From positions 1 through 41,768 of the forward strand of contig JAFIGE010000029.1 in the NCBI GenBank assembly GCA_020831585.1: a DNA stretch of 41,768 nt, in the 5' to 3' direction. Origin of the DNA: Opitutales bacterium (GTDB lineage Bacteria > Verrucomicrobiota > Verrucomicrobiia > Opitutales > Oceanipulchritudinaceae). A program made the translations under genes and the position numbers. The notes beneath the pieces were generated by a model. That model was given only the letters and a program-made list of their open reading frames with translations. It was not told the DNA's origin and did not search any database. Below, piece after piece: positions 10,165 to 22,664 of the stretch; position 1 is the first letter of the stretch, and each line of letters starts with the position of its first letter.

Positions 10165-11049
10165 TCAGGCCACTTTGAGATCTTTTGTGGCTCTGGTCGG
10201 TATGCGGAACCCCTGGATGAGCCACCAGATGAAAACCAGGCAACTGTAATACGTGATCGTGCCGACGATTTCGTGCATCAGATAATAGTTGTCGAGGCCG
10301 ACAACGGGCGCGAGCACCACGATGATTACGATGCGGATGAAGTTAAAGAGGATCCCGCAGATTCCCGCCGTAAAGACCAGGAGGGCTTTGTCGACGAGGG
10401 GAAGAGGGCGGTAAAGGACGAGGAGCATACTCAGGAGAAGACTCGCCGTGAGGACACCAAAACCGTTGCACTCAGGCGCCACCAGGAAGGGCTGGTCGTT
10501 CGCAAAAAGGAGGAGCTGGGGGCCGTCTTCATTGGAGAGCAGGCGCAGATCAATTTCCTTGCCCAGGAGACCGAGAAACCACCCCGATCCCTGCGCCGCG
10601 ACTCCCCGGAGGGGCCAGTCGAGCGCAGGCAGAAAGATCGCCAGCGCCGTGTAGGCGCCGAAGGCTCCGAGAAATGCCCCGACCACCCGGGCCATGGAAC
10701 GCCCGAGAAGGTAAAGAAGGAAGGAGGCGAGGGCAAGAATGAGGCTGGGAAAAGCGACGAAGGCCCACCCGGTGATCCACGTAAGAACGGCTCCGGCATA
10801 GGCGGCGGCCAGCAAACCCACCGCCGGTGCGCCGAAGTCCCAGTTCAGACGAAGGGAAATGCGCTGGTCGACGACGAGAAAAACCCCCGCCATCCCCAGT
10901 ACAACGAAGGCGTGGCGCAGTTGCTCCTCCGCGAGGGTTCGCCCCGTCAGCCAGTGCAAAATGGGCAAGAAAGTGAAAAAGGTCGCCGCGTAGATGAGCA
11001 GCGGTATCCATTCCCGCTGAAGAAATGCTGTAGTTTTGTTTGGAGACAT
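10165..11049 (-). CDS. Exosortase/archaeosortase-family transpeptidase
   Basis: This 294-aa membrane protein has about eight hydrophobic segments. The three family-defining catalytic residues are visible: Cys194 in APECNGFG, Arg239 in FNFIRI and His259 in YLMHEIVG. Exosortases are thought to cleave C-terminal PEP-CTERM signals of exported proteins and attach them to the cell surface. Two such proteins lie about 11 kb away (21864 and 23114), with IPEP motifs rather than the VPDSG motif linked to XrtC. I therefore leave the subfamily open. The length is typical of stand-alone exosortases. It lies downstream of the FAD oxidoreductase gene on the same strand after 97 bases, so cotranscription is possible. 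Confidence 0.9.
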   Translation of the reverse strand: MSPNKTTAFLQREWIPLLIYAATFFTFLPILHWLTGRTLAEEQLRHAFVVLGMAGVFLVVDQRISLRLNWDFGAPAVGLLAAAYAGAVLTWITGWAFVAFPSLILALASFLLYLLGRSMARVVGAFLGAFGAYTALAIFLPALDWPLRGVAAQGSGWFLGLLGKEIDLRLLSNEDGPQLLLFANDQPFLVAPECNGFGVLTASLLLSMLLVLYRPLPLVDKALLVFTAGICGILFNFIRIVIIVVLAPVVGLDNYYLMHEIVGTITYYSCLVFIWWLIQGFRIPTRATKDLKVA

Positions 11050-11146: not shown

Positions 11147-12625
11147 TCACGCCAAAGACACCTTGGCTTCTTCAAAGAGAAACTTGTCCACGCGGTTGGC
11201 GGTGATAACGCCGTAGTTGATCGTGCCGAGCCAACCGGACATGATAATCCCCACGGAGCCCGCGTGGAAGAGGCCGGGCAATTGGTCGGGCAGGTCCTGG
11301 GAGACTTTGAGGCCCTCGAATTTGGTCCCGAAAGAAGTCCCGCCTATGTGCCGGGTGTAGCGGTTGACGGTGAGGGGCGTCGCTGCTTCGAGGTGTTCGA
11401 TCTTTTCCGACACCCCGGGGATGAGTTTCTCCAAAGCGGCCACCGCCCCATCAATGAGGACCTGTTTCTCTTTCTCGTAGGTGGCGTCGTCGAGGTGAGC
11501 CCAGTCTTCCCAGCGCGCGTTGATGGAGGCCACAATGGCATAGCGCGGTTGCTTTTGGTGGGGACGGGTGTCGGGGTAATAAAAGGAAAAGGTGCGGCTG
11601 CTGGTGCGCATGCCGGTCAGTTCTTCCATGGAAAAGTGTTCCGCCTCCGAGGTGAAGACGAGATCGCCGCAAAAGGGGATGGATTCTCCCTTGCGCAGGC
11701 CCATGTAGACTTGGCAGGAACTCGTGTTGACCCGCACTTTTTCCGCTTCCTCGACAAAGGCCGGGGCAAACCGCGCTTTCCCCGCAAGCCGAAGGATGGT
11801 GTTCTTGATGTTGGCGTTGGAGACGACCGCGCGGCAGCGGATGGTGCGCGGCGGGTGGGTCTCCCCGGTATTTTGGCTTTGTGCCACCACACCGGTTACG
11901 CGCTCGCGACCGTCGGGCACCGGTTCGGTGAGGATTTCCCGCACAAGCGCGCATTTGCGCACTTCGGCCCCGTTGCCGCGCAGCTCCTCCACCATTTTCG
12001 TGATGAGCGTATCCGTGCCACCTTTGAAGATGTAGACGCCCTTGCTCATGAAGTTGGAAAAAACAATGCCGTAGGTGATCGCCGGATCCTCCATGGAGGA
12101 TCCGTTGGCGTAGGAAATCGGCTCCATGAGGAGGCGGTGCACATCGTTTCGCCCGGGAAAGAACTCCTCGAACATCTCGCCCGTGGTCTGGCGGTCGTCA
12201 TCGTAGAAGTTCATCTTCCGCAAGTGGTCGTAGAAAGCCTCCACGCGTTCCCGCTCCAGTCCGAAAACGTTCACGAGCTTTTCCGTGAAGTCGCTGCGGT
12301 CGAAGGTCGTTTGGATGTTCATCTGCGGATTGATGAACCGCACGTCGCTCAATTGATGGATGCGCTCGGCGATCTCACGCGACCAGTATTTCCGGCAAGA
12401 CTTGATCATCCCCACAGGAAACCCGTGCAGGGAAATGTCGAAGATGTGCCCGCCGGGCCGCTTGAACCATGTGGCGAGTCCGCCAAATTGATAATGGTGC
12501 TCCAACACAAGGACGCGGTGCCCTGCCTTCGCGAGGCAGTTTGCGCTTGTGAGGCCGCCCAAGCCGCTTCCGATTACGATCACATCGTAATCTTCCGCGA
12601 CACCTTCCAACCAATCTTTTGCCAT
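11147..12625 (-). CDS. CrtI-like FAD-dependent oxidoreductase (phytoene desaturase / retinol saturase type)
   Basis: This 492-aa flavoprotein has an N-terminal Rossmann motif [14 protein letters not shown] (residues 15-28) and the family motif [12 protein letters not shown]. The late motif [20 protein letters not shown] positions FAD and is typical of carotenoid desaturases and retinol saturases. The product acts on an unknown, probably long polyunsaturated, lipid. No carotenoid synthesis genes are seen in the window. The start at 12625 (MAKDW) was preferred to one 11 codons upstream because alignment to the family begins near it. The exosortase gene follows on the same strand. A link to the polyketide operon at 15 kb is conceivable but unsupported. 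Confidence 0.8.
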
Positions 12626-12707
12626 ACGTCGGAGAAAGCTGCACAGGCCCCGCCCCACCGCAAACCCGAAAAGCGTATTGACTTGAGCCGGTCCTGGCGG
12701 CCAAAAA

Positions 12708-13454: not shown

Positions 13455-14825
13455 CTACGCCTTGGCCACGGCGCGCAGGATCGCCTCGCTCACATCGATC
13501 CCTTTGGCGAACATACCGAGGTCAAAACTCTCATTGGGCGCATGCAGATTGTCTTCGGGGGTGAACATGCCGAGCATGATCGAGTCCATCCCGAGCACGC
13601 GCTGGAGGTCGCCGATGATGGGCACGCTGCCTCCCTCGCGCAGATAGAGCGGGGCGTTGCCAAAGGCGGCGCGCACAGCGTCATCCGCCGCCCGAAAGGC
13701 GCGCGCCAAAACCGGCGATTGGTCCGCCGGGGTATCCGACCGGTCGGGCGGCACAACGCGGTAGGGCGGCCCACTGTGCCCCGGTTCGATGTGGAGGCGC
13801 ACGGTTGGGGGGCAGCGGTCCTTGAGCGTCGCAATCACCGCCGCTTCCACTGCTTTCGGGTCTTGCCCGGCAACGAGACGGCAGGAGATTTTCGCAAAAG
13901 CCCGCGAGGGGATAATGGTTTTCGAGCCCTCGCCCTGATAGCCGCCGCCCATACCATTGATTTCCAGAGTGGGCCAGAAACGCGTCGCTTCAAGAGCCGT
14001 GTAACCCGGATGCAAGGGGAGGGAGGGGACGCCCAGGCGCGCCGCCATGGCCGCCTCGCTCTCATCCAGGTGCGCCAGCTCGGCTCGTTCCCATGCCTCC
14101 GGCGATGTCACGCCATCATAAAAGCCGGGCACGTTCACCTGCCCGTCGGCATTGTGCAGGGTGGCGCACAACCGCGCCAAAACGGTCGCCGGGTTGGCCA
14201 CCGCTCCGCCGAAGATGCCGGAGTGCAGATCCGACCTGGGACCCTCCACCACCACGTCGAGGCAGATGATTCCGCGCAACCCCGTGGTGATGGCCAGTTG
14301 CTCCGTGCTCGGACTCATCGTGTCGGAGAGCAGAACAAAATCCCCCTTCAGGCGATGGGCCTGTTTGCTGAGAAACGTTGCGAAACTGGGGCTGCCGATC
14401 TCCTCCTCCCCCTCAATGAGAAAGGTTAGCCGCAGGGGCAGATCCGGTTGGGCTTCGAGCAGCCTCGCCGCTGCGGCGATATGCACCATCATCGGACCCT
14501 TGTTGTCCGCCGCGCCCCGCCCAAAGAGGCGCCCGTCCTGAACGACGGGATCGAACGGCGGCGTGCTCCAGAGTTCGAGCGGATCAGCCGGTTGCACATC
14601 GTAGTGGCCGTAGATGAGGACGTGAGGCCACTCCGCCGGACCCTCGCGCCTCGCCAGCACGATGGGGTGTTTGGCCGTCGGCACGGTCTCCACGGCGAGG
14701 CCCATGCCCGCAAGCAGGCCCGAAATATGCTCGCGCGCCCCCCGCATGCCCGCCTCTGCACGGGAGTCTGTGGAAATACTTGGATGGCGGATAAATTCCC
14801 GCACCGCTTCAACTGGATCAAACAT
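13455..14825 (-). CDS. M20-family metallodipeptidase
   Basis: This 456-aa zinc peptidase is of the M20/ArgE-DapE superfamily, closest in pattern to carnosinase-like dipeptidases. The metal-binding motifs are all present: GHYDVQP (His74, Asp76), GRGAADNKGP (Asp108), EGEEEIGS (Glu141/Glu142), LLSDT (Asp168) and a late PEDNLHAPNE carrying the last His. The dimerisation domain contains DLHSGIFGG. It probably hydrolyses dipeptides in the cytoplasm, since no signal peptide is seen. The ATG at 14825 starts at MFDPVEAVREF, normal for the family. It is divergent from the methyltransferase operon. Confidence 0.9.
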   Translation of the reverse strand: MFDPVEAVREFIRHPSISTDSRAEAGMRGAREHISGLLAGMGLAVETVPTAKHPIVLARREGPAEWPHVLIYGHYDVQPADPLELWSTPPFDPVVQDGRLFGRGAADNKGPMMVHIAAAARLLEAQPDLPLRLTFLIEGEEEIGSPSFATFLSKQAHRLKGDFVLLSDTMSPSTEQLAITTGLRGIICLDVVVEGPRSDLHSGIFGGAVANPATVLARLCATLHNADGQVNVPGFYDGVTSPEAWERAELAHLDESEAAMAARLGVPSLPLHPGYTALEATRFWPTLEINGMGGGYQGEGSKTIIPSRAFAKISCRLVAGQDPKAVEAAVIATLKDRCPPTVRLHIEPGHSGPPYRVVPPDRSDTPADQSPVLARAFRAADDAVRAAFGNAPLYLREGGSVPIIGDLQRVLGMDSIMLGMFTPEDNLHAPNESFDLGMFAKGIDVSEAILRAVAKA

Positions 14826-15023: not shown

Positions 15024-15692
15024 ATGATCCCCCGCCGCGTCTTTCCGGAATTGCTCGACTCGTTGGAAGAAGGGGATCCGGCAGCCTTGCGAAACCGCCG
15101 GGATCTGCGCCGCCTGAATGCGGTCATGGGCAACCATCGATGGCTTTGCCGCCAGTTGGAGCGGTTGGTGCGGCCGGGCGACCGGGTGCTTGAGCTGGGC
15201 GCGGGAGATGGGGTGCTCCTGCGCAAACTGGACGCCCGTCTGCGGGGGCGGGGAGTCACCCTGAGCGGTCTCGACCGGTGCGCCTCACCCATCGGGTTGC
15301 CTGCCGGCGTGAACTGGATTCGAGCTGACTTGCTGGAGTTCGAGGGGTGGGCGGATTACTCTGTCGTCGTGGTCAATTTGCTTCTGCATCAGTTCGAGGA
15401 TGACGCGTTGCGCGGCTTGGGTTTGCGCATGGGCGCGTCGGCGCGGTGTGTGTTGGGCAACGAAACGGTGCGGGGTCGGTGGCACGGCTTTATGGCACGG
15501 GCTTCCTATCTTTTGGGGATGGGGCCGGTGAGCCGCCACGATGCGGTGGTGAGCGTGCGAGCGGGTTTTCGCCCGGGTGAACTGCGGCAATTGCTTGGCT
15601 GGACGGAGGGTCGGTGGCGCGTGGAGGAGCATGTTTCCCTGCTCAGCGCCCTGCGCTTTTGCGCGCGGCGGGAGGATGAAAGAGGGCCATGA
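15024..15692 (+). CDS. Class I SAM-dependent methyltransferase, first gene of the type III PKS operon
   Basis: This 222-aa methyltransferase has the SAM-binding motif RVLELGAGDGVLL (about 54-66) and a later acidic motif IRADLLEFEG. A UbiE-like hydrophobic region with VVVNLLLHQFEDDAL follows. ATG 15024 is preferred to TTG 15018, two codons upstream. It overlaps the FAD oxidoreductase gene by four bases (ATGA) and that gene nearly abuts the type III PKS, so the three form a tight operon. I infer that it methylates the polyketide product or a quinone made from it. The substrate cannot be read from sequence. Confidence 0.85.
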   Translation: MIPRRVFPELLDSLEEGDPAALRNRRDLRRLNAVMGNHRWLCRQLERLVRPGDRVLELGAGDGVLLRKLDARLRGRGVTLSGLDRCASPIGLPAGVNWIRADLLEFEGWADYSVVVVNLLLHQFEDDALRGLGLRMGASARCVLGNETVRGRWHGFMARASYLLGMGPVSRHDAVVSVRAGFRPGELRQLLGWTEGRWRVEEHVSLLSALRFCARREDERGP

Positions 15693-16732
15693 AGCGCCCG
15701 GTAACGATTGTGGGCGGGGGTGTGGCGGGGCTGGCGCTGGGGGTGCGGTTGCGCGAGCGCGGGGTCGGGGTGGTTCTTCATGAAGCGGGGAGCTATCCGC
15801 GCCACCGGGTGTGCGGCGAGTTTTTTGCCGGACAGGGGGAAGCTTATTTGCGGCGTTTGGGGGTGGTCGCGGAGACCGATGGACTGCCCCGGCACAGCGT
15901 TTCCCATTGGCAACGGGGGAGCGGTAAAACGGTTTCCATGAAGCTACCGCAGGGGGCGCTGGGGCTCTCCCGTCATCGGTTGGATCGCGATCTGGCGGCG
16001 CGTTTTGAGAGGCTGGGTGGCGACTTGCGGGCGGGCTCGCGACTGCCGGAGAAGGCGGGGGGGCGGCCCGGCGTGGTTTGGGCGGCGGGGCGGGCTCCGG
16101 ATCCGCGCAGCCGCTGGGTCGGGTTGAAGGCGCATACGCTGCGGGCCGATCATCCGGAGGGTCTCGAAGTTCACTTCGGTGAGGGTGCCTATGTCGGCGT
16201 GTCGGCGGTGGAAGGGGATCGCCTGAATGTGTGCGGGCTCTTTCGAAAGCGTGAATGGGGTCGCGTGAAAAAGGAAGCGGCGCTTCCGCGGGCCCTCGAA
16301 GTGGCCGGGCTGGGGGCGCTCGCGGAGCGGGTTGCCCGACTCGGGTTGGATGAGGCGAGCTTCTCGGCGGTGAGCGGTTTACGCTTGGGTTGGCGGGGCC
16401 TGCCAGCGGACCGCATACACCTGGGCGATGCGCTTGCGGTGATCCCTCCCTTTACGGGAGACGGCATGAGCCTCGCGCTGGAGAGCGCGTTCCTTGTCGA
16501 AGAGCCCCTGGTTGCCTACGCGGAGGGGAAGTTGGATTGGGCGGCGTGCGTTGGCGGGAGCAACCGTTTGCTGCGGGTGCGCTTGGCGGGGCGCTGCCGG
16601 CGGGCGGCCTGGTTGCACCCGCTCCTGCTCAATCCTTTCGGTCAGCGGATGTTGCTTTTGGCCGCGCGCGGGGGTTGTTTGCCCTTTCGCTCTCTTCACC
16701 GACTCACGCACGGAACCGCCCCCGCCCATTGA
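15689..16732 (+). CDS. FAD-dependent oxidoreductase of the type III PKS operon
   Basis: This 347-aa flavoprotein belongs to the geranylgeranyl-reductase / aromatic-hydroxylase-like group. The N-terminal dinucleotide motif is VTIVGGGVAGLALGVRL (5-21), with RHRVCGEFF after it. The FAD-phosphate motif LGDALAVIPPFTGDGMSLAL lies near residue 250. It probably oxidises or hydroxylates the alkylresorcinol- or pyrone-like product of the neighbouring synthase; this is inference from the operon. Start and stop are tightly packed between the methyltransferase (4-base overlap) and the synthase (2-base gap). The coding strand is strikingly G-rich here. Confidence 0.85.
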   Translation: MKRPVTIVGGGVAGLALGVRLRERGVGVVLHEAGSYPRHRVCGEFFAGQGEAYLRRLGVVAETDGLPRHSVSHWQRGSGKTVSMKLPQGALGLSRHRLDRDLAARFERLGGDLRAGSRLPEKAGGRPGVVWAAGRAPDPRSRWVGLKAHTLRADHPEGLEVHFGEGAYVGVSAVEGDRLNVCGLFRKREWGRVKKEAALPRALEVAGLGALAERVARLGLDEASFSAVSGLRLGWRGLPADRIHLGDALAVIPPFTGDGMSLALESAFLVEEPLVAYAEGKLDWAACVGGSNRLLRVRLAGRCRRAAWLHPLLLNPFGQRMLLLAARGGCLPFRSLHRLTHGTAPAH

Positions 16733-16734
16733 CG

Positions 16735-17778
16735 ATGTACCTTCTCAGTCTCCAAACCGCTTTGCCTCCAAAATTCTTTCCGCAGGAAGCCTCATGGGAG
16801 GCCTTTCGCGAATCGGCCACGGCCCGGCGCCTCCGGGGCCGTTCAGTGAGCCTGGTGGAGAAGCTGCTTCGCCGGAACAACGGGATCGACGGGAGGCACT
16901 TCGCCCTCCTTCCCCTCGAAGACATTTTCGAGCGGGACGCGGAAAGCCTCAACCGGGGCTTTGAGGCGGTGGCTCCCCCTCTGGGTGCCCGCGCTTTGGC
17001 GGCCGCGCTGGACTCGGCGGGGTTGGCGGCGGGGGATGTGGATGCCCTCATTGTTTGCACTTGCACGGGCTACCTCTGTCCGGGGCTGAGCAGCTTTATC
17101 GCGGAGCAGGCGGGCCTGCGGGGGGACGCCGGACTTTTCGATCTCGCGGGCCTCGGTTGTGGGGCGGCCATTCCCTCGCTCCGCCTGGCCGCCGGGCTGG
17201 CGGCGGCGGATCCGGAAGCGCGCATCGGAGTGATCGCCCTCGAGGTGTGCAGCGCGGCTTTCTACATGGACGACGATCCGGGCGTTCTCATCAGCGCGTG
17301 TCTTTTTGGCGACGGGGCGGCGGCAGTGATTGTTTCGGGGACCCCGGGACAGGGGGCGGCTTGGCAATTCTCCGGATTCCGGAGCTTGCACTTGCCGGAG
17401 AATCGACAGGACCTGCGTTTTGAAAATTCGGGGGGCAAGCTTCGCAACCGCCTCCACCGTTCAGTGCCGCAGACGGCGGCTGCAGCCGTGAAGACGCTGG
17501 AGGCTGGCTTTCGCGCGAGCAACCCCGGACGCAACCCCCGCTATATCACGCACGGTGGTGGGAAGGATGTGCTCGACGCGTTGGAGCCGGTTGTTGGCCA
17601 AGCCTTGCCGGAAGCGCGCGCGGTTTTGCGTGAAGCCGGCAATATGAGCAGCCCGAGCGTGCTCTTCGCCCTGCGGCGCTATCTCGATGGGGAGGCCGGG
17701 GCGGACGACCTCCGGCTCATCAGCTTCGGCGCGGGTTTTTCGGCACATGCCTGCTCGCTCAGGCGCGGCGGGGCGTAG
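16735..17778 (+). CDS. Type III polyketide synthase (chalcone/stilbene synthase family)
   Basis: This 347-aa thiolase-fold enzyme has the complete type III PKS triad: Cys142 in LAGLGCGAA, His273 in YITHGGGKDV and Asn303 in EAGNMSSPSVLFAL. The Asn and the GNMSSPSV motif separate it from FabH. Such enzymes extend acyl-CoA starters with malonyl-CoA and cyclise the product to resorcinols, pyrones or related rings. ATG 16735 lies two bases after the stop of the oxidoreductase gene and starts at the conserved N terminus. A frame extension to 16390 runs inside the previous gene and is not used. The 3' end overlaps the convergent XylR-like gene by 20 bases. With its two partners it probably makes a modified phenolic or quinone lipid. 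Confidence 0.93.
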   Translation: MYLLSLQTALPPKFFPQEASWEAFRESATARRLRGRSVSLVEKLLRRNNGIDGRHFALLPLEDIFERDAESLNRGFEAVAPPLGARALAAALDSAGLAAGDVDALIVCTCTGYLCPGLSSFIAEQAGLRGDAGLFDLAGLGCGAAIPSLRLAAGLAAADPEARIGVIALEVCSAAFYMDDDPGVLISACLFGDGAAAVIVSGTPGQGAAWQFSGFRSLHLPENRQDLRFENSGGKLRNRLHRSVPQTAAAAVKTLEAGFRASNPGRNPRYITHGGGKDVLDALEPVVGQALPEARAVLREAGNMSSPSVLFALRRYLDGEAGADDLRLISFGAGFSAHACSLRRGGA

Positions 17779-18976
17779 GGCTTTCGTCAGCGCCTGGGGT
17801 GTCTTCCCATTGTGCGGGGGCCCGCTCGCGGCGAAAGCGGGTGGGGGAGCAGCCCATGTATTTGGTGAAGCGTTCGGAGAGGTCGGCGTGCTTGTTGAAC
17901 CCGCAGTGCTGGGCGATTTCCGCGATGCTGAGGTCGGAATCGAGAAGCATGCGGCCGGCCCGCTGGACGCGTTTGCGCATGATAAACTCCCGCATGGACT
18001 CGCCCCGTTGGCGGCGGAACTTTTCACTGAGGGTGCGCTCTGACATGGGAAAGCGCTCAAGCACATCCGCCACGGAAGGGGAATGGCCGCAGTTGACTTC
18101 TTTGCAGAGCCAGCGGGCGATGCGCGAGAGGAGGGGATCCTCGCAGGAAAAGCCGCCGGTCGTCTCGCGCTCGACGAGGCGCGCCCCTCGGATGCGGATG
18201 ACGCTACCGGGCGCGTAGGCACCGTGATGGGCGGCGCGTTCGAGGTAGTCTGCCGCGTAGGCGCCGACACCGGCAAAGTTCGGCAAGATGGAGGTGAGGG
18301 GCTCGCCTTCGGAAGGGTCGTCGAGGCGGCTCCAGTCGTCATCCACCCCGACGAGGCCGATGGTCTCGGCGGTGTCCGGTTGGCAGCGGCGGAGGGCGCG
18401 GAGGAAGCGTACGGCAATGAGGTCGTTGGCTGCGAAAACGGCCGCACTCGGCCCCAGGAGGGGGAGCCATTCGTTCATTTCGTTGTTCTCGCGTTGCTCG
18501 ATGGTGAAGGGGTCCATACGGTCCCGCTTTTTGAAGCTGAGGTTTCCGAGGAGCGGAAGGCCGCGCCGTTTCAGGGCCTTTTCGAAGGCTTCCGCCCGGC
18601 TACGGGAAAAGGCGGCGGGCGGATCGCCCACGAAGAAGAAGCGGGTGTAGCCGATGCCGGCGAGGTGATCGGCGGCCAGTTCACCAATCTCCGTGCTGTC
18701 GTAGTGGATGTTGATCGCAAACGGGCAGGGTGGGAGGCGCTCGGAGACGTTGATGAGAGGCCGGTGGATGCTGGCCGCCATCTCCCGCACGCGTTCGTTG
18801 CTCACAGGAAGGACGATTCCCAGGCATTCGGGGGCATCTGTGAGCCGTTTTTCGTGGCTGCGGATGAGGACCACGGGGAGCGGGCTGATCTTGCGCCAGC
18901 GGGTCTTGAAGGCTTGCTCGACGAGATTGGCGAAGGTGAGGCTGGGGGGAGAAATGAACTGCACGTAACCCGACAT
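17759..18976 (-). CDS. XylR-like transcription regulator (sugar-binding domain plus AraC HTH)
   Basis: This 405-aa regulator joins a LacI-type periplasmic-binding-like domain (about 1-275) to a C-terminal AraC double helix-turn-helix (about 295-390). The first domain shows INIHYDSTEIGELAADHLAGIGY and the typical end LVGVDDDWSRLDD. The HTH part contains LERFPMSERTLSEKFRRQ and LSIAEIAQHCGFN. This architecture is that of E. coli XylR and of many sugar-pathway regulators. It lies 108 bases downstream of the glycosidase-like gene on the same strand and probably controls it, sensing an unknown sugar. Its 3' end overlaps the type III PKS gene, with no terminator between them. Confidence 0.88.
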   Translation of the reverse strand: MSGYVQFISPPSLTFANLVEQAFKTRWRKISPLPVVLIRSHEKRLTDAPECLGIVLPVSNERVREMAASIHRPLINVSERLPPCPFAINIHYDSTEIGELAADHLAGIGYTRFFFVGDPPAAFSRSRAEAFEKALKRRGLPLLGNLSFKKRDRMDPFTIEQRENNEMNEWLPLLGPSAAVFAANDLIAVRFLRALRRCQPDTAETIGLVGVDDDWSRLDDPSEGEPLTSILPNFAGVGAYAADYLERAAHHGAYAPGSVIRIRGARLVERETTGGFSCEDPLLSRIARWLCKEVNCGHSPSVADVLERFPMSERTLSEKFRRQRGESMREFIMRKRVQRAGRMLLDSDLSIAEIAQHCGFNKHADLSERFTKYMGCSPTRFRRERAPAQWEDTPGADESPTPRRA

Positions 18977-21863: not shown

Positions 21864-22664
21864 ATGAAATACATCACTTCTCTCCTATGCCTGGCTACAG
21901 TGCCTTTCGCCTCCGGCGCGACGGTCTTTTTGGATACGTTTGCCGACGACGACCGCACGGTCGACCCCGCCTGGTTTATCATCGGAGCGCCTGCGGCGGT
22001 TGACATCAACCAGGCCGACGGCGTCCTGTCCCTCGGGCGCACGCAATCCAATTCCCACACCTATCTGGCTTCTAATTGGAGCGGCACTTCCCTCGCCGTG
22101 GGAGATGCCCTTGCATTCGCCTTCCGCGTGAAGCTCACGGGCAACCAGGGCAACCGGAACAACGAAATCATGTTTACCATCGGTAACAACAACGGCACTG
22201 TGCCGACGGCAGACGGGCAGAATGTGTTCGCCGATGATTTCGGCTATGTCGTCGCTTTGGGCAGCGGCACCGGCACTGGCTCGATCCAGCGCGATGCAGG
22301 CACGGATAATTGGCTCGGGCGTTTTCCGGGCATTGACCACACCCAGATCACCGATTTCTCCTCGGCCTTGGCCATCACCGGCAGCTTTCAGACCTACACC
22401 CTCACGCTTACGCGCACGGGAGCCGGTCTCGATATTGAGCTGAGCAATGGTACGACCACCATCACAACGAGCGACACGAACGTGCCGGCCGAAGCCTTCT
22501 ACACCTTCAACACGGTGACCTTCGGCTACTACAACCGGAACACGGCCAACTTCGTCGACGTTGACTTTTTCGAGGTGACATATTCGCCCATTCCCGAGCC
22601 TTCGGCTTATGCGGCTCTTTTCGGTCTTCTTGCCTTGGCCTGCGCGCGCTATCGCCGCCGCTGA
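21864..22664 (+). CDS. PEP-CTERM surface protein, probable beta-sandwich (lectin-like) domain
   Basis: This 266-aa exported protein has a signal peptide (MKYITSLLCLATVPFASGA) and ends in a PEP-CTERM sorting signal: IPEPSAYAALFG at about 243, a hydrophobic stretch and a basic RYRRR tip. The body is rich in Thr, Asn, Gly and alternating beta pattern (VFLDTFADDDRTVDP, AFAFRVKLTGNQGN), like concanavalin/LamG-type sandwich domains in other PEP-CTERM proteins. An exosortase would cleave it after export and fix it to the surface or extracellular matrix. The exosortase at 10165 is the candidate enzyme. A strong terminator follows. Confidence 0.85.
   Translation: MKYITSLLCLATVPFASGATVFLDTFADDDRTVDPAWFIIGAPAAVDINQADGVLSLGRTQSNSHTYLASNWSGTSLAVGDALAFAFRVKLTGNQGNRNNEIMFTIGNNNGTVPTADGQNVFADDFGYVVALGSGTGTGSIQRDAGTDNWLGRFPGIDHTQITDFSSALAITGSFQTYTLTLTRTGAGLDIELSNGTTTITTSDTNVPAEAFYTFNTVTFGYYNRNTANFVDVDFFEVTYSPIPEPSAYAALFGLLALACARYRRR

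What the first reader, a model, noticed from the sequence alone, without database searches (positions are those of the whole stretch)
15024..17778. Compact methyltransferase / FAD oxidoreductase / type III PKS operon
Three genes with a 4-base overlap and a 2-base gap encode a methyltransferase, a geranylgeranyl-reductase-like flavoprotein and a type III PKS with an intact Cys142/His273/Asn303 triad. The layout implies a phenolic, pyrone or quinone-type lipid that is built, oxidised and methylated in three steps. Type III PKS with tailoring enzymes is known in other bacteria, but I do not know a product for this arrangement in Verrucomicrobiota.
Basis: partly seen in the sequence, partly recalled or inferred. 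Interest (0 to 1): 0.7.

Follow-up and report, generated by a model that had tools for sequence, protein, structure and literature searches.

The report
Verrucomicrobial phenolic-lipid operon, new synthase lineage
Three overlapping bacterial genes that look like a small assembly line for an oxidised, methylated fatty phenol are conserved together in many Verrucomicrobiota of one class, and their chain-building enzyme belongs to a branch of type III polyketide synthases for which I know of no characterised product.

Summary
A methyltransferase (15024-15692), a flavoprotein (15689-16732; ATGA overlap) and a type III polyketide synthase (16735-17778; Cys142/His273/Asn303) form a compact operon. 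The three proteins are only 28-30% identical to those of a planctomycete operon. The synthase is not in the Hid-like clade (AU p 3.7e-5; stand-ins used) nor with KASIII/FabH. With Caballeronia and other verrucomicrobial enzymes it forms a sister lineage of 31 sampled classical enzymes, marked by CTGYxCPG and Asn at the Phe265 gatekeeper site; its FGAG loop is shared with KASIII, not with classical enzymes (GPG). The trio is complete and in order in 62 of the 80 best named relatives. Synthase and flavoprotein co-occur (of 55 genomes: both 21, one alone 1 and 1, neither 32). The flavoprotein's fold is that of monooxygenases/halogenases, so ring hydroxylation is likelier than reduction. Best reading: acyl starter plus malonyl-CoA to an alkylresorcinol-type phenol, then hydroxylation and methylation. 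No chemistry is shown. New variant of a known kind.

The parts
15024..15692 (+). Class I SAM methyltransferase (222 aa), divergent relative of the PRK06202 family to which the planctomycete operon methyltransferase is close
   Evidence: PRK06202 52.6 bits, cut-off 243; 29.8% to Paludisphaera operon MT, E 2e-12; Paludisphaera MT 232.4 bits to PRK06202
15689..15692 (+). ATGA start/stop overlap; same -4 junction in 50 of 62 complete trios among named relatives
15689..16732 (+). FAD-dependent oxidoreductase (347 aa), fold of flavin monooxygenases and halogenases; likely ring hydroxylase
   Evidence: (29.0% to Paludisphaera operon flavoprotein, E 5e-18); WxWxI[PR] motif in 0 of 67 family members
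16735..17778 (+). Type III polyketide synthase (347 aa) of a lineage sister to the 31 sampled classical type III PKSs
17062..17085 (+). CTGYLCPG motif (residues 110-117); Cys110 aligns with THNS Cys106 / CHS Thr132; the CTGYxCPG pattern was found only in this lineage
   Evidence: equivalence Thr132/Cys106 from PMC6274091 (passages)
17158..17160 (+). Codon of catalytic Cys142
17446..17448 (+). Codon of Asn238 at the CHS Phe265 gatekeeper position, invariant in the family
   Evidence: Met at this place in the HidC clade per PMC8086630 (passages)
17551..17553 (+). Codon of catalytic His273
17641..17643 (+). Codon of catalytic Asn303
17725..17739 (+). FGAGF loop in place of the classical GPG loop; FGAG is shared with 10 of 13 KASIII rows

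Best explanation
A self-contained hidABC-like operon that makes a decorated phenolic lipid. The synthase takes a fatty acyl starter (CoA- or ACP-bound), condenses it with about three malonyl-CoA and closes the chain to an alkylresorcinol-type ring. The flavoprotein then adds an oxygen to the ring with O2 and reduced FAD. The methyltransferase adds one or more methyl groups (O- as in hierridin, or C- as reported for Gimesia maris). The order of the last two steps, the chain length, the ring type and the cellular role are inferred. Shown here: gene content, order, conservation, lineage, predicted folds and active-site residues. The synthase belongs to a lineage separate from the Hid-like clade that works with homologous tailoring enzymes.
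For: Operon and genes. Same gene order as hidABC and the planctomycetal operon with alkylresorcinols shown in a heterologous host (PMC10896814 Results parts 1 and 2 of 3 and Discussion; PMC8086630 section 12 and passages). All three proteins are homologous to those of the Paludisphaera MT-FAD-PKS operon (E 2e-12, 5e-18, 6e-31). Trio complete and in order in 62 of the 80 best named loci, 6 more cut by a contig end, 12 varied. Co-occurrence of synthase and flavoprotein in 55 genomes: both 21, synthase only 1, flavoprotein only 1, neither 32; in 2 genomes with a lone synthase the MT-FAD pair stays together elsewhere. Predicted fold nearest to the alkylpyrone synthase PKS11 (Z 45.5, rmsd 1.9, 339 aligned); by their titles the 50 rows shown are type III PKSs (one, 7f08, is titled only 'K8'). 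Partner swapping: in 6 of 16 loci of a related verrucomicrobial lineage (L088, L089, L090, L093, L096, L097) the flavoprotein is of the Deinococcus type that otherwise serves classical synthases (tree support 92-94 SH-aLRT), so both synthase lineages probably feed the same kind of tailoring. The one such partner scanned (L088) scores as an aromatic hydroxylase. Cys110, Glu170 and Ser305 sit at the CHS Thr132/Glu192/Ser338 places (CHS numbers of the last two recalled).
Against: No product has been detected. The synthase is only 28-31% identical to the seven classical enzymes compared, outside the Hid-like clade (AU p 3.7e-5), with Asn instead of Met at the gatekeeper. Its FGAG loop is that of 10 of 13 KASIII rows and not the GPG of classical enzymes. 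So the product may differ. The closest fold is a pyrone, not a resorcinol, synthase, and chalcone and stilbene synthases follow within about 1.5 Z. Some members lack the flavoprotein (G036 no match in two searches; G268, G409, G387 only weak matches; G409 and G387 have MT-PKS) or have neither neighbour. The role of the flavoprotein is unproven even in Gimesia maris (PMC10896814).
Confidence: 0.6

Rival explanations
1. Same operon logic, but the synthase releases an alkyl-alpha-pyrone (lactonisation) that is then oxidised and methylated.
For: Nearest solved fold is the Mycobacterium alkylpyrone synthase PKS11, with plant 2-pyrone synthase also in the top five rows of both lists. The fungal enzyme ORAS makes both pyrones and resorcinols (PMC6274091 passage).
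Against: The tailoring proteins are relatives of those paired with resorcinol synthases in planctomycetes and cyanobacteria, and an aromatic hydroxylase fold suits a phenol better than a pyrone. Fold similarity does not tell ring type.
Confidence: 0.2
2. A small-starter product (DpgA-like dihydroxyphenylacetyl-CoA or a THN/phloroglucinol-like aromatic) rather than a lipid.
For: DpgA is the best NCBIfam model (122.9 bits), and THNS 1u0m is the best PDB sequence hit (7e-33). Cys110 matches THNS Cys106.
Against: The DpgA cut-off is 425 bits. The flanking genes are a peptidase and a regulator on the other strand, whereas the Streptomyces dpgA locus has dpgB and dpgC; the rest of the genome was not searched for them. 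DpgA and RppA lie in the classical clade, not with the window family. Most bacterial type III PKSs have the second Cys.
Confidence: 0.1
3. A KASIII-like condensing enzyme (single condensation or head-to-head) that is not a polyketide synthase.
For: Weak FabH-family scores (54 bits or less); triad shared with KASIII; the C-terminal FGAG loop is shared with 10 of 13 verrucomicrobial KASIII rows, not with classical type III PKSs; the Caballeronia relative lies beside an ACP and a KAS gene. I raised this rival from 0.07 to 0.1 after finding the shared loop.
Against: 13 KASIII sequences from Verrucomicrobiota separate from all 63 type III-like rows at 100/100, on a much longer branch than the one between the two type III lineages. 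By title the 50 best structures shown are type III PKSs. CTGYxCPG is in 0 of 13 KASIII.
Confidence: 0.1

Closest known systems
hidABC operon (hierridin biosynthesis, Cyanobium sp. LEGE 06113 and other cyanobacteria)
   Same: Methyltransferase, oxidoreductase and type III PKS in the same order, synthase last (PMC8086630, PMC10896814).
   Different: HidC itself could not be fetched. Four of the five named Hid-like stand-ins were compared and are 28-31% identical to the window synthase, and one clade of both is rejected. Gatekeeper Asn, not the Met reported for the HidC clade.
Planctomycetota MT-oxidoreductase-type III PKS operon (58 of 96 genes; alkylresorcinols from Gimesia maris and Rhodopirellula baltica synthases)
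   Same: Identical layout. The Paludisphaera example (L128) has 4-base overlaps at both junctions, and all three proteins are homologous.
   Different: 28-30% identity per protein; different synthase lineage. The paper also reports two Lacipirellula synthases unlike any characterised one; whether they belong here was not tested.
Caballeronia sp. SBC2 plasmid pSBC2-3 cluster (PKS-MT-FAD-ACP-KAS)
   Same: Synthase 42% identical and in the same lineage; MT 34%, flavoprotein 26%.
   Different: Synthase first, plus an ACP and a ketoacyl synthase gene, which suggests an ACP-borne starter there; no relative of these two was found in the window.
Mycobacterium tuberculosis PKS11 (alkylpyrone synthase)
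   Same: Nearest solved fold (Z 45.5), similar length.
   Different: 27% identity; lies in the classical clade; its gene neighbourhood was not looked at here.

Membership tests
Type III polyketide synthase superfamily | Thiolase-type fold closest to solved type III PKSs, apart from KASIII in a tree | tested here: met
   By title the 50 rows shown in each list are type III PKSs (7f08 titled 'K8'); 100/100 split from 13 KASIII rows
Type III polyketide synthase superfamily | Cys-His-Asn catalytic triad | tested here: met
   C142, H273, N303 in 124 of 124 rows; not specific, KASIII shares it
Type III polyketide synthase superfamily | GPG loop near the C-terminus as in the sampled classical enzymes | tested here: not met
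   FGAG in 32 of 32 lineage rows and in 10 of 13 KASIII rows; of 31 classical rows 28 match GPG/GGG in the last 45 residues, 2 more have FGPG further in, 1 has SPG. So filed as a sister lineage, not as a classical member.
Type III polyketide synthase superfamily | Iterative condensation of malonyl-CoA on an acyl starter | not testable with these tools
   needs enzyme assay
hidABC-type operon | Order MT - flavoprotein - type III PKS on one strand | tested here: met
   62 of 80 relatives
hidABC-type operon | Synthase in the HidC-like clade | tested here: not met
   AU p 3.7e-5 against one clade with 15 Hid-like rows (Paludisphaera, Psychrobacter, Deinococcus, Novosphingobium, Microvirga, 10 verrucomicrobial); HidC itself not available, groups named after an earlier tree was seen
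hidABC-type operon | Met at the CHS Phe265 gatekeeper position (HidC clade) | tested here: not met
   Asn238 in 124 of 124; Paludisphaera, Deinococcus, Novosphingobium, Microvirga have Met, Psychrobacter has Ile
KASIII / FabH | Groups with FabH in a tree; FabH model above cut-off | tested here: not met
   TIGR00747 46.4 of 292.1 bits; 100/100 split. The shared FGAG loop speaks the other way.
DpgA (3,5-dihydroxyphenylacetyl-CoA synthase) | NF042429 above cut-off | tested here: not met
   122.9 of 425 bits; DpgA outside the window lineage
DpgA (3,5-dihydroxyphenylacetyl-CoA synthase) | dpgB, dpgC, dpgD partner genes | not tested
   the direct neighbours are other genes, but the genome was not searched for the partners
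Geranylgeranyl reductase family | TIGR02032 above its cut-off | tested here: not met
   43 of 158.8 bits
Geranylgeranyl reductase family | Structural similarity to solved geranylgeranyl reductases | tested here: inconclusive
   none named in the 50 rows shown, which are mostly monooxygenases and halogenases; absence is no proof
Flavin-dependent halogenase | WxWxI[PR] motif (recalled) | tested here: not met
   0 of 67 family flavoproteins, although PltA ranks first by fold

The most novel reading that the evidence does not exclude
The window synthase represents a deep lineage of type III PKSs, sister to the sampled known ones (plant, fungal-type, actinobacterial, Hid-like), that kept a KASIII-like GAG loop and has its own active-site set-up (CTGYxCPG with Cys110/Cys115, Asn gatekeeper). 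With its two partners it makes a so far undescribed methylated, oxidised lipid that is a common trait of one class of Verrucomicrobiota, for example a membrane phenol or an alternative quinone.
Probability: 0.35. Interest if true: 0.72.

Novelty: new variant of a known kind. Interest (0 to 1): 0.52.

Why it matters
Verrucomicrobiota are abundant and chemically little known. A three-gene set kept across many genera of one class points to a useful, probably membrane-associated product. If the synthase lineage is as separate as the tree says, it widens the sequence and active-site space of type III polyketide synthases and offers a form between KASIII and the classical enzymes. Carriers whose titles name strains rather than MAGs (Cerasicoccus frondis NBRC 105381, C. 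maritimus NBRC 105382, Pelagicoccus sp. SDUM812002) make the product directly testable.

Tried and rejected
Considered and rejected: straight transfer of a cyanobacterial/planctomycetal hidABC operon; a KASIII enzyme; DpgA; a halogenase (motif absent); a geranylgeranyl reductase. Promoter and terminator scans gave nothing above chance: 0 promoter-like sites against 0.4 expected, 5 terminator-like against 5.1. I first took the FGAG loop for a mark of the lineage; one search showed it in 10 of 13 KASIII rows, because the pattern FGAG[FM] was too narrow (it counted 1 of 13), so I withdrew that mark.

Led nowhere: a tree with a single KASIII outgroup had a very long outgroup branch and an unsure root (one search repeated it because my KASIII filter found one row), so I used the 13-row outgroup. 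Of the 16 candidate KASIII loci, 3 gave no ORF under my filter and were dropped. The tree used 18 of the 44 window-type loci fetched, 12 of the 16 loci of the second lineage, and 13 of the 20 loci, picked by hand for spread. HidC, SrsA, PhlD and the Gimesia/Rhodopirellula synthases were not available as sequences, so the Hid-like clade is represented by stand-ins. Caballeronia and the second-lineage rows do not form one group. In the flavoprotein and methyltransferase trees many deep branches are weak, and treekit warned of long branches that meet. For the co-occurrence count four weak flavoprotein matches (E 1e-4 to 7e-4) were set aside.

Not in print, as far as searched: no paper on a product or on this synthase lineage in Verrucomicrobiota among the listings (capped lists), with passages seen of PMC12193912, PMC10927696 and PMC9865893, which report antiSMASH type III PKS clusters in Verrucomicrobiota without a product, and of PMC10805854 (nothing relevant). 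Most subscription journals are not held; I did not look for the hierridin paper (Costa 2019) itself.
Full report
WHAT IS THERE. The genes on both sides run the other way: an M20 peptidase upstream (13455-14825, -) and a regulator with HTH_18 and Peripla_BP_3 domains downstream (17759-18976, -), whose end overlaps the synthase end by 20 bases. So the trio looks like a self-contained operon. No promoter or terminator stood out.

WHAT THE PROTEINS ARE. The synthase scores 63 bits to FAE1_CUT1_RppA and 57 to Chal_sti_synt_N. Its AlphaFold2 model (mean pLDDT 93.3, 41 sequences) is closest to PKS11 of Mycobacterium tuberculosis (Z 45.5, rmsd 1.9, 339 residues aligned), and by title the 50 rows shown in each list are type III PKSs (one, 7f08, is titled only 'K8'). 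The flavoprotein has FAD_binding_3 and a 43-bit hit to the geranylgeranyl reductase family against a cut-off of 158.8. Its model (pLDDT 87.4, 34 sequences) is closest to halogenase PltA (Z 31.2, rmsd 3.4, 331 aligned), in a tie with indole monooxygenase (30.9), ChlB4 halogenase (30.8) and TrlE monooxygenase (30.4); 3-hydroxybenzoate 6-hydroxylase (29.6) and p-hydroxybenzoate hydroxylase (29.0) follow. None of 67 family members has the WxWxI[PR] halogenase motif (motif recalled), so a ring monooxygenase is the better guess. The methyltransferase is a divergent relative of the family PRK06202 (52.6 bits), to which the planctomycete operon methyltransferase is much closer (232.4 bits, cut-off 243).

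KNOWN PRECEDENT. [quoted passage not shown]) and of 58 of 96 type III PKS genes in Planctomycetota (PMC10896814: abstract, Results parts 1 and 2 of 3, Discussion, passages). In the second paper six synthases were tested alone in C. glutamicum: those of G. maris and R. baltica (full operon), S. maiorica (no oxidoreductase gene) and 'S. ferox' (two methyltransferases) made alkylresorcinols; those of P. limnophila and A. californiensis, which lack the operon, gave no product. Adding the methyltransferase and oxidoreductase of Gimesia maris gave a methylated product, judged C-methylated, while HidA O-methylates. The role of the oxidoreductase stayed open. A named planctomycete example, Paludisphaera borealis plasmid PALBO1, is homologous to the window in all three proteins: 29.8%, 29.0% and 28.3% identity, E 2e-12, 5e-18 and 6e-31.

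CONSERVATION. In 387 genomes of the phylum, 52 carry a close synthase (E 1e-88 or better), all in the window's own class by the kinship column. The trio is complete and in the same order in 62 of the 80; 6 are cut by a contig end; 12 vary. Of 62 complete trios, 50 have the -4 junction between the first two genes. Among the 44 window-type loci of the unnamed set, 33 have the full trio in order; the two sets overlap. In 55 related genomes, synthase and flavoprotein occur together in 21, synthase alone in 1, flavoprotein alone in 1, neither in 32. In two genomes with a lone synthase (G037, G250) the MT-FAD pair sits together elsewhere; in one more (G018) the flavoprotein is elsewhere with no methyltransferase found in the 1.5 kb on either side; in another (L055) the pair lies about 2 kb downstream of the synthase's end. 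Lines without the flavoprotein exist: G036 has no match, G268, G409 and G387 have only weak ones, and G409 and G387 keep methyltransferase and synthase.

LINEAGE. In a maximum-likelihood tree of 76 proteins with 13 KASIII as outgroup (bootstrap/SH-aLRT), KASIII separate at 100/100. The type III-like enzymes split into 31 classical rows (99/89: RppA, PKS11, PKS18, algal PKS1, curcuminoid synthase, Steely1, DpgA, BcsA, Azospirillum, Deinococcus, Novosphingobium, Paludisphaera and others) and 32 rows (98/93) made of the window family (19 rows, 100/100), Caballeronia with L087, and a second verrucomicrobial lineage. Holding the window family together with 15 Hid-like rows costs 177 log units (AU p 3.7e-5). 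The groups were named after an earlier tree had been seen, so the p-value is indicative. HidC itself was not available. Of the five named stand-ins, Paludisphaera, Deinococcus, Novosphingobium and Microvirga carry Met at the Phe265 gatekeeper place as reported for the HidC clade, Psychrobacter has Ile.

ACTIVE SITE. Cys110, Tyr113, Cys115, Cys142, Glu170, Phe191, Arg224, Asn238, His273 and Asn303 are the same in 124 of 124 window-type rows, some genomes counted twice under two ids. CTGYxCPG occurs in 32 of 32 lineage rows, 0 of 31 classical and 0 of 13 KASIII. The C-terminal loop is FGAG in 32 of 32 lineage rows and also in 10 of 13 KASIII rows; of 31 classical rows 28 match GPG or GGG in the last 45 residues, two more have FGPG further in, and one has SPG. 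So the loop is a KASIII-like trait that sets the lineage apart from classical enzymes only; it fits a branch between the two, and it is the best argument for the KASIII rival, which I raised from 0.07 to 0.1. Cys110 aligns with THNS Cys106, the equivalent of CHS Thr132 and a second active-site thiol found in most bacterial type III PKSs (PMC6274091, passages; the Cys is residue 114 of the 1u0m chain, an offset of 8 that also fits the catalytic Cys138, recalled).

HOW IT LIKELY WORKS. Inferred: an acyl starter and about three malonyl-CoA give an alkylresorcinol-type phenol, which the flavoprotein hydroxylates and the methyltransferase methylates. Two findings tie the new lineage to that chemistry. 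First, homologous tailoring enzymes accompany both synthase lineages. Second, partners were swapped: 6 of 16 loci of the second verrucomicrobial lineage have a flavoprotein of the Deinococcus type (5 of them with a Deinococcus-type methyltransferase), which otherwise serve classical synthases, and the one scanned scores as an aromatic hydroxylase. In Caballeronia an ACP and a KAS gene follow and in Novosphingobium they precede the synthase, so an ACP-bound starter is possible; no relative of these was found in the window.

VERDICT. A real, conserved operon. Its layout is known from other phyla, but the synthase lineage is separate from the references I could test, and no product was found in print. 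New variant of a known kind.

Noticed in passing
L088, L089, L090, L093, L096, L097 (whole loci): A second verrucomicrobial synthase lineage is followed by Deinococcus-type flavoprotein genes (in all but L096 also a Deinococcus-type methyltransferase): tailoring partners swapped between synthase lineages.
   Followed up: partly
L127:6001-10708: Caballeronia sp. SBC2 plasmid carries a relative of the trio (PKS-MT-FAD) with an ACP and a ketoacyl synthase gene, about 1.5 kb after a site-specific integrase.
   Followed up: partly
   Followed up: no
window 17759-18976 (-): Regulator with an AraC-type helix-turn-helix and a Peripla_BP_3 domain overlaps the synthase 3' end by 20 bases on the other strand.
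   Followed up: no
window 10165-11049 (-) and 21864-22664 (+): Exosortase gene (Exosortase_EpsH) and a protein without a Pfam match whose C-terminus looks like a PEP-CTERM sorting signal (motif recalled).
   Followed up: no
window 11147-12658 (-): Flavin amine-oxidoreductase-like protein (Amino_oxidase) close to the operon; no sign that it belongs to it.
   Followed up: no
L223:3998-6821: Psychrobacter urativorans plasmid has the synthase convergent with a FAD-MT pair that overlaps it by 4 bases, a further layout of the trio.
   Followed up: no
L230, L231, L232, L236, L237, L242 and others: Verrucomicrobial KASIII/FabH-type proteins mostly end in an FGAG loop (10 of 13), the same as in the window synthase.
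   Followed up: partly
L167, L191: Record titles 'Proteobacteria bacterium' and 'Akkermansia muciniphila' sit on contigs with a window-type synthase; probably misnamed or mis-binned MAGs.
   Followed up: no
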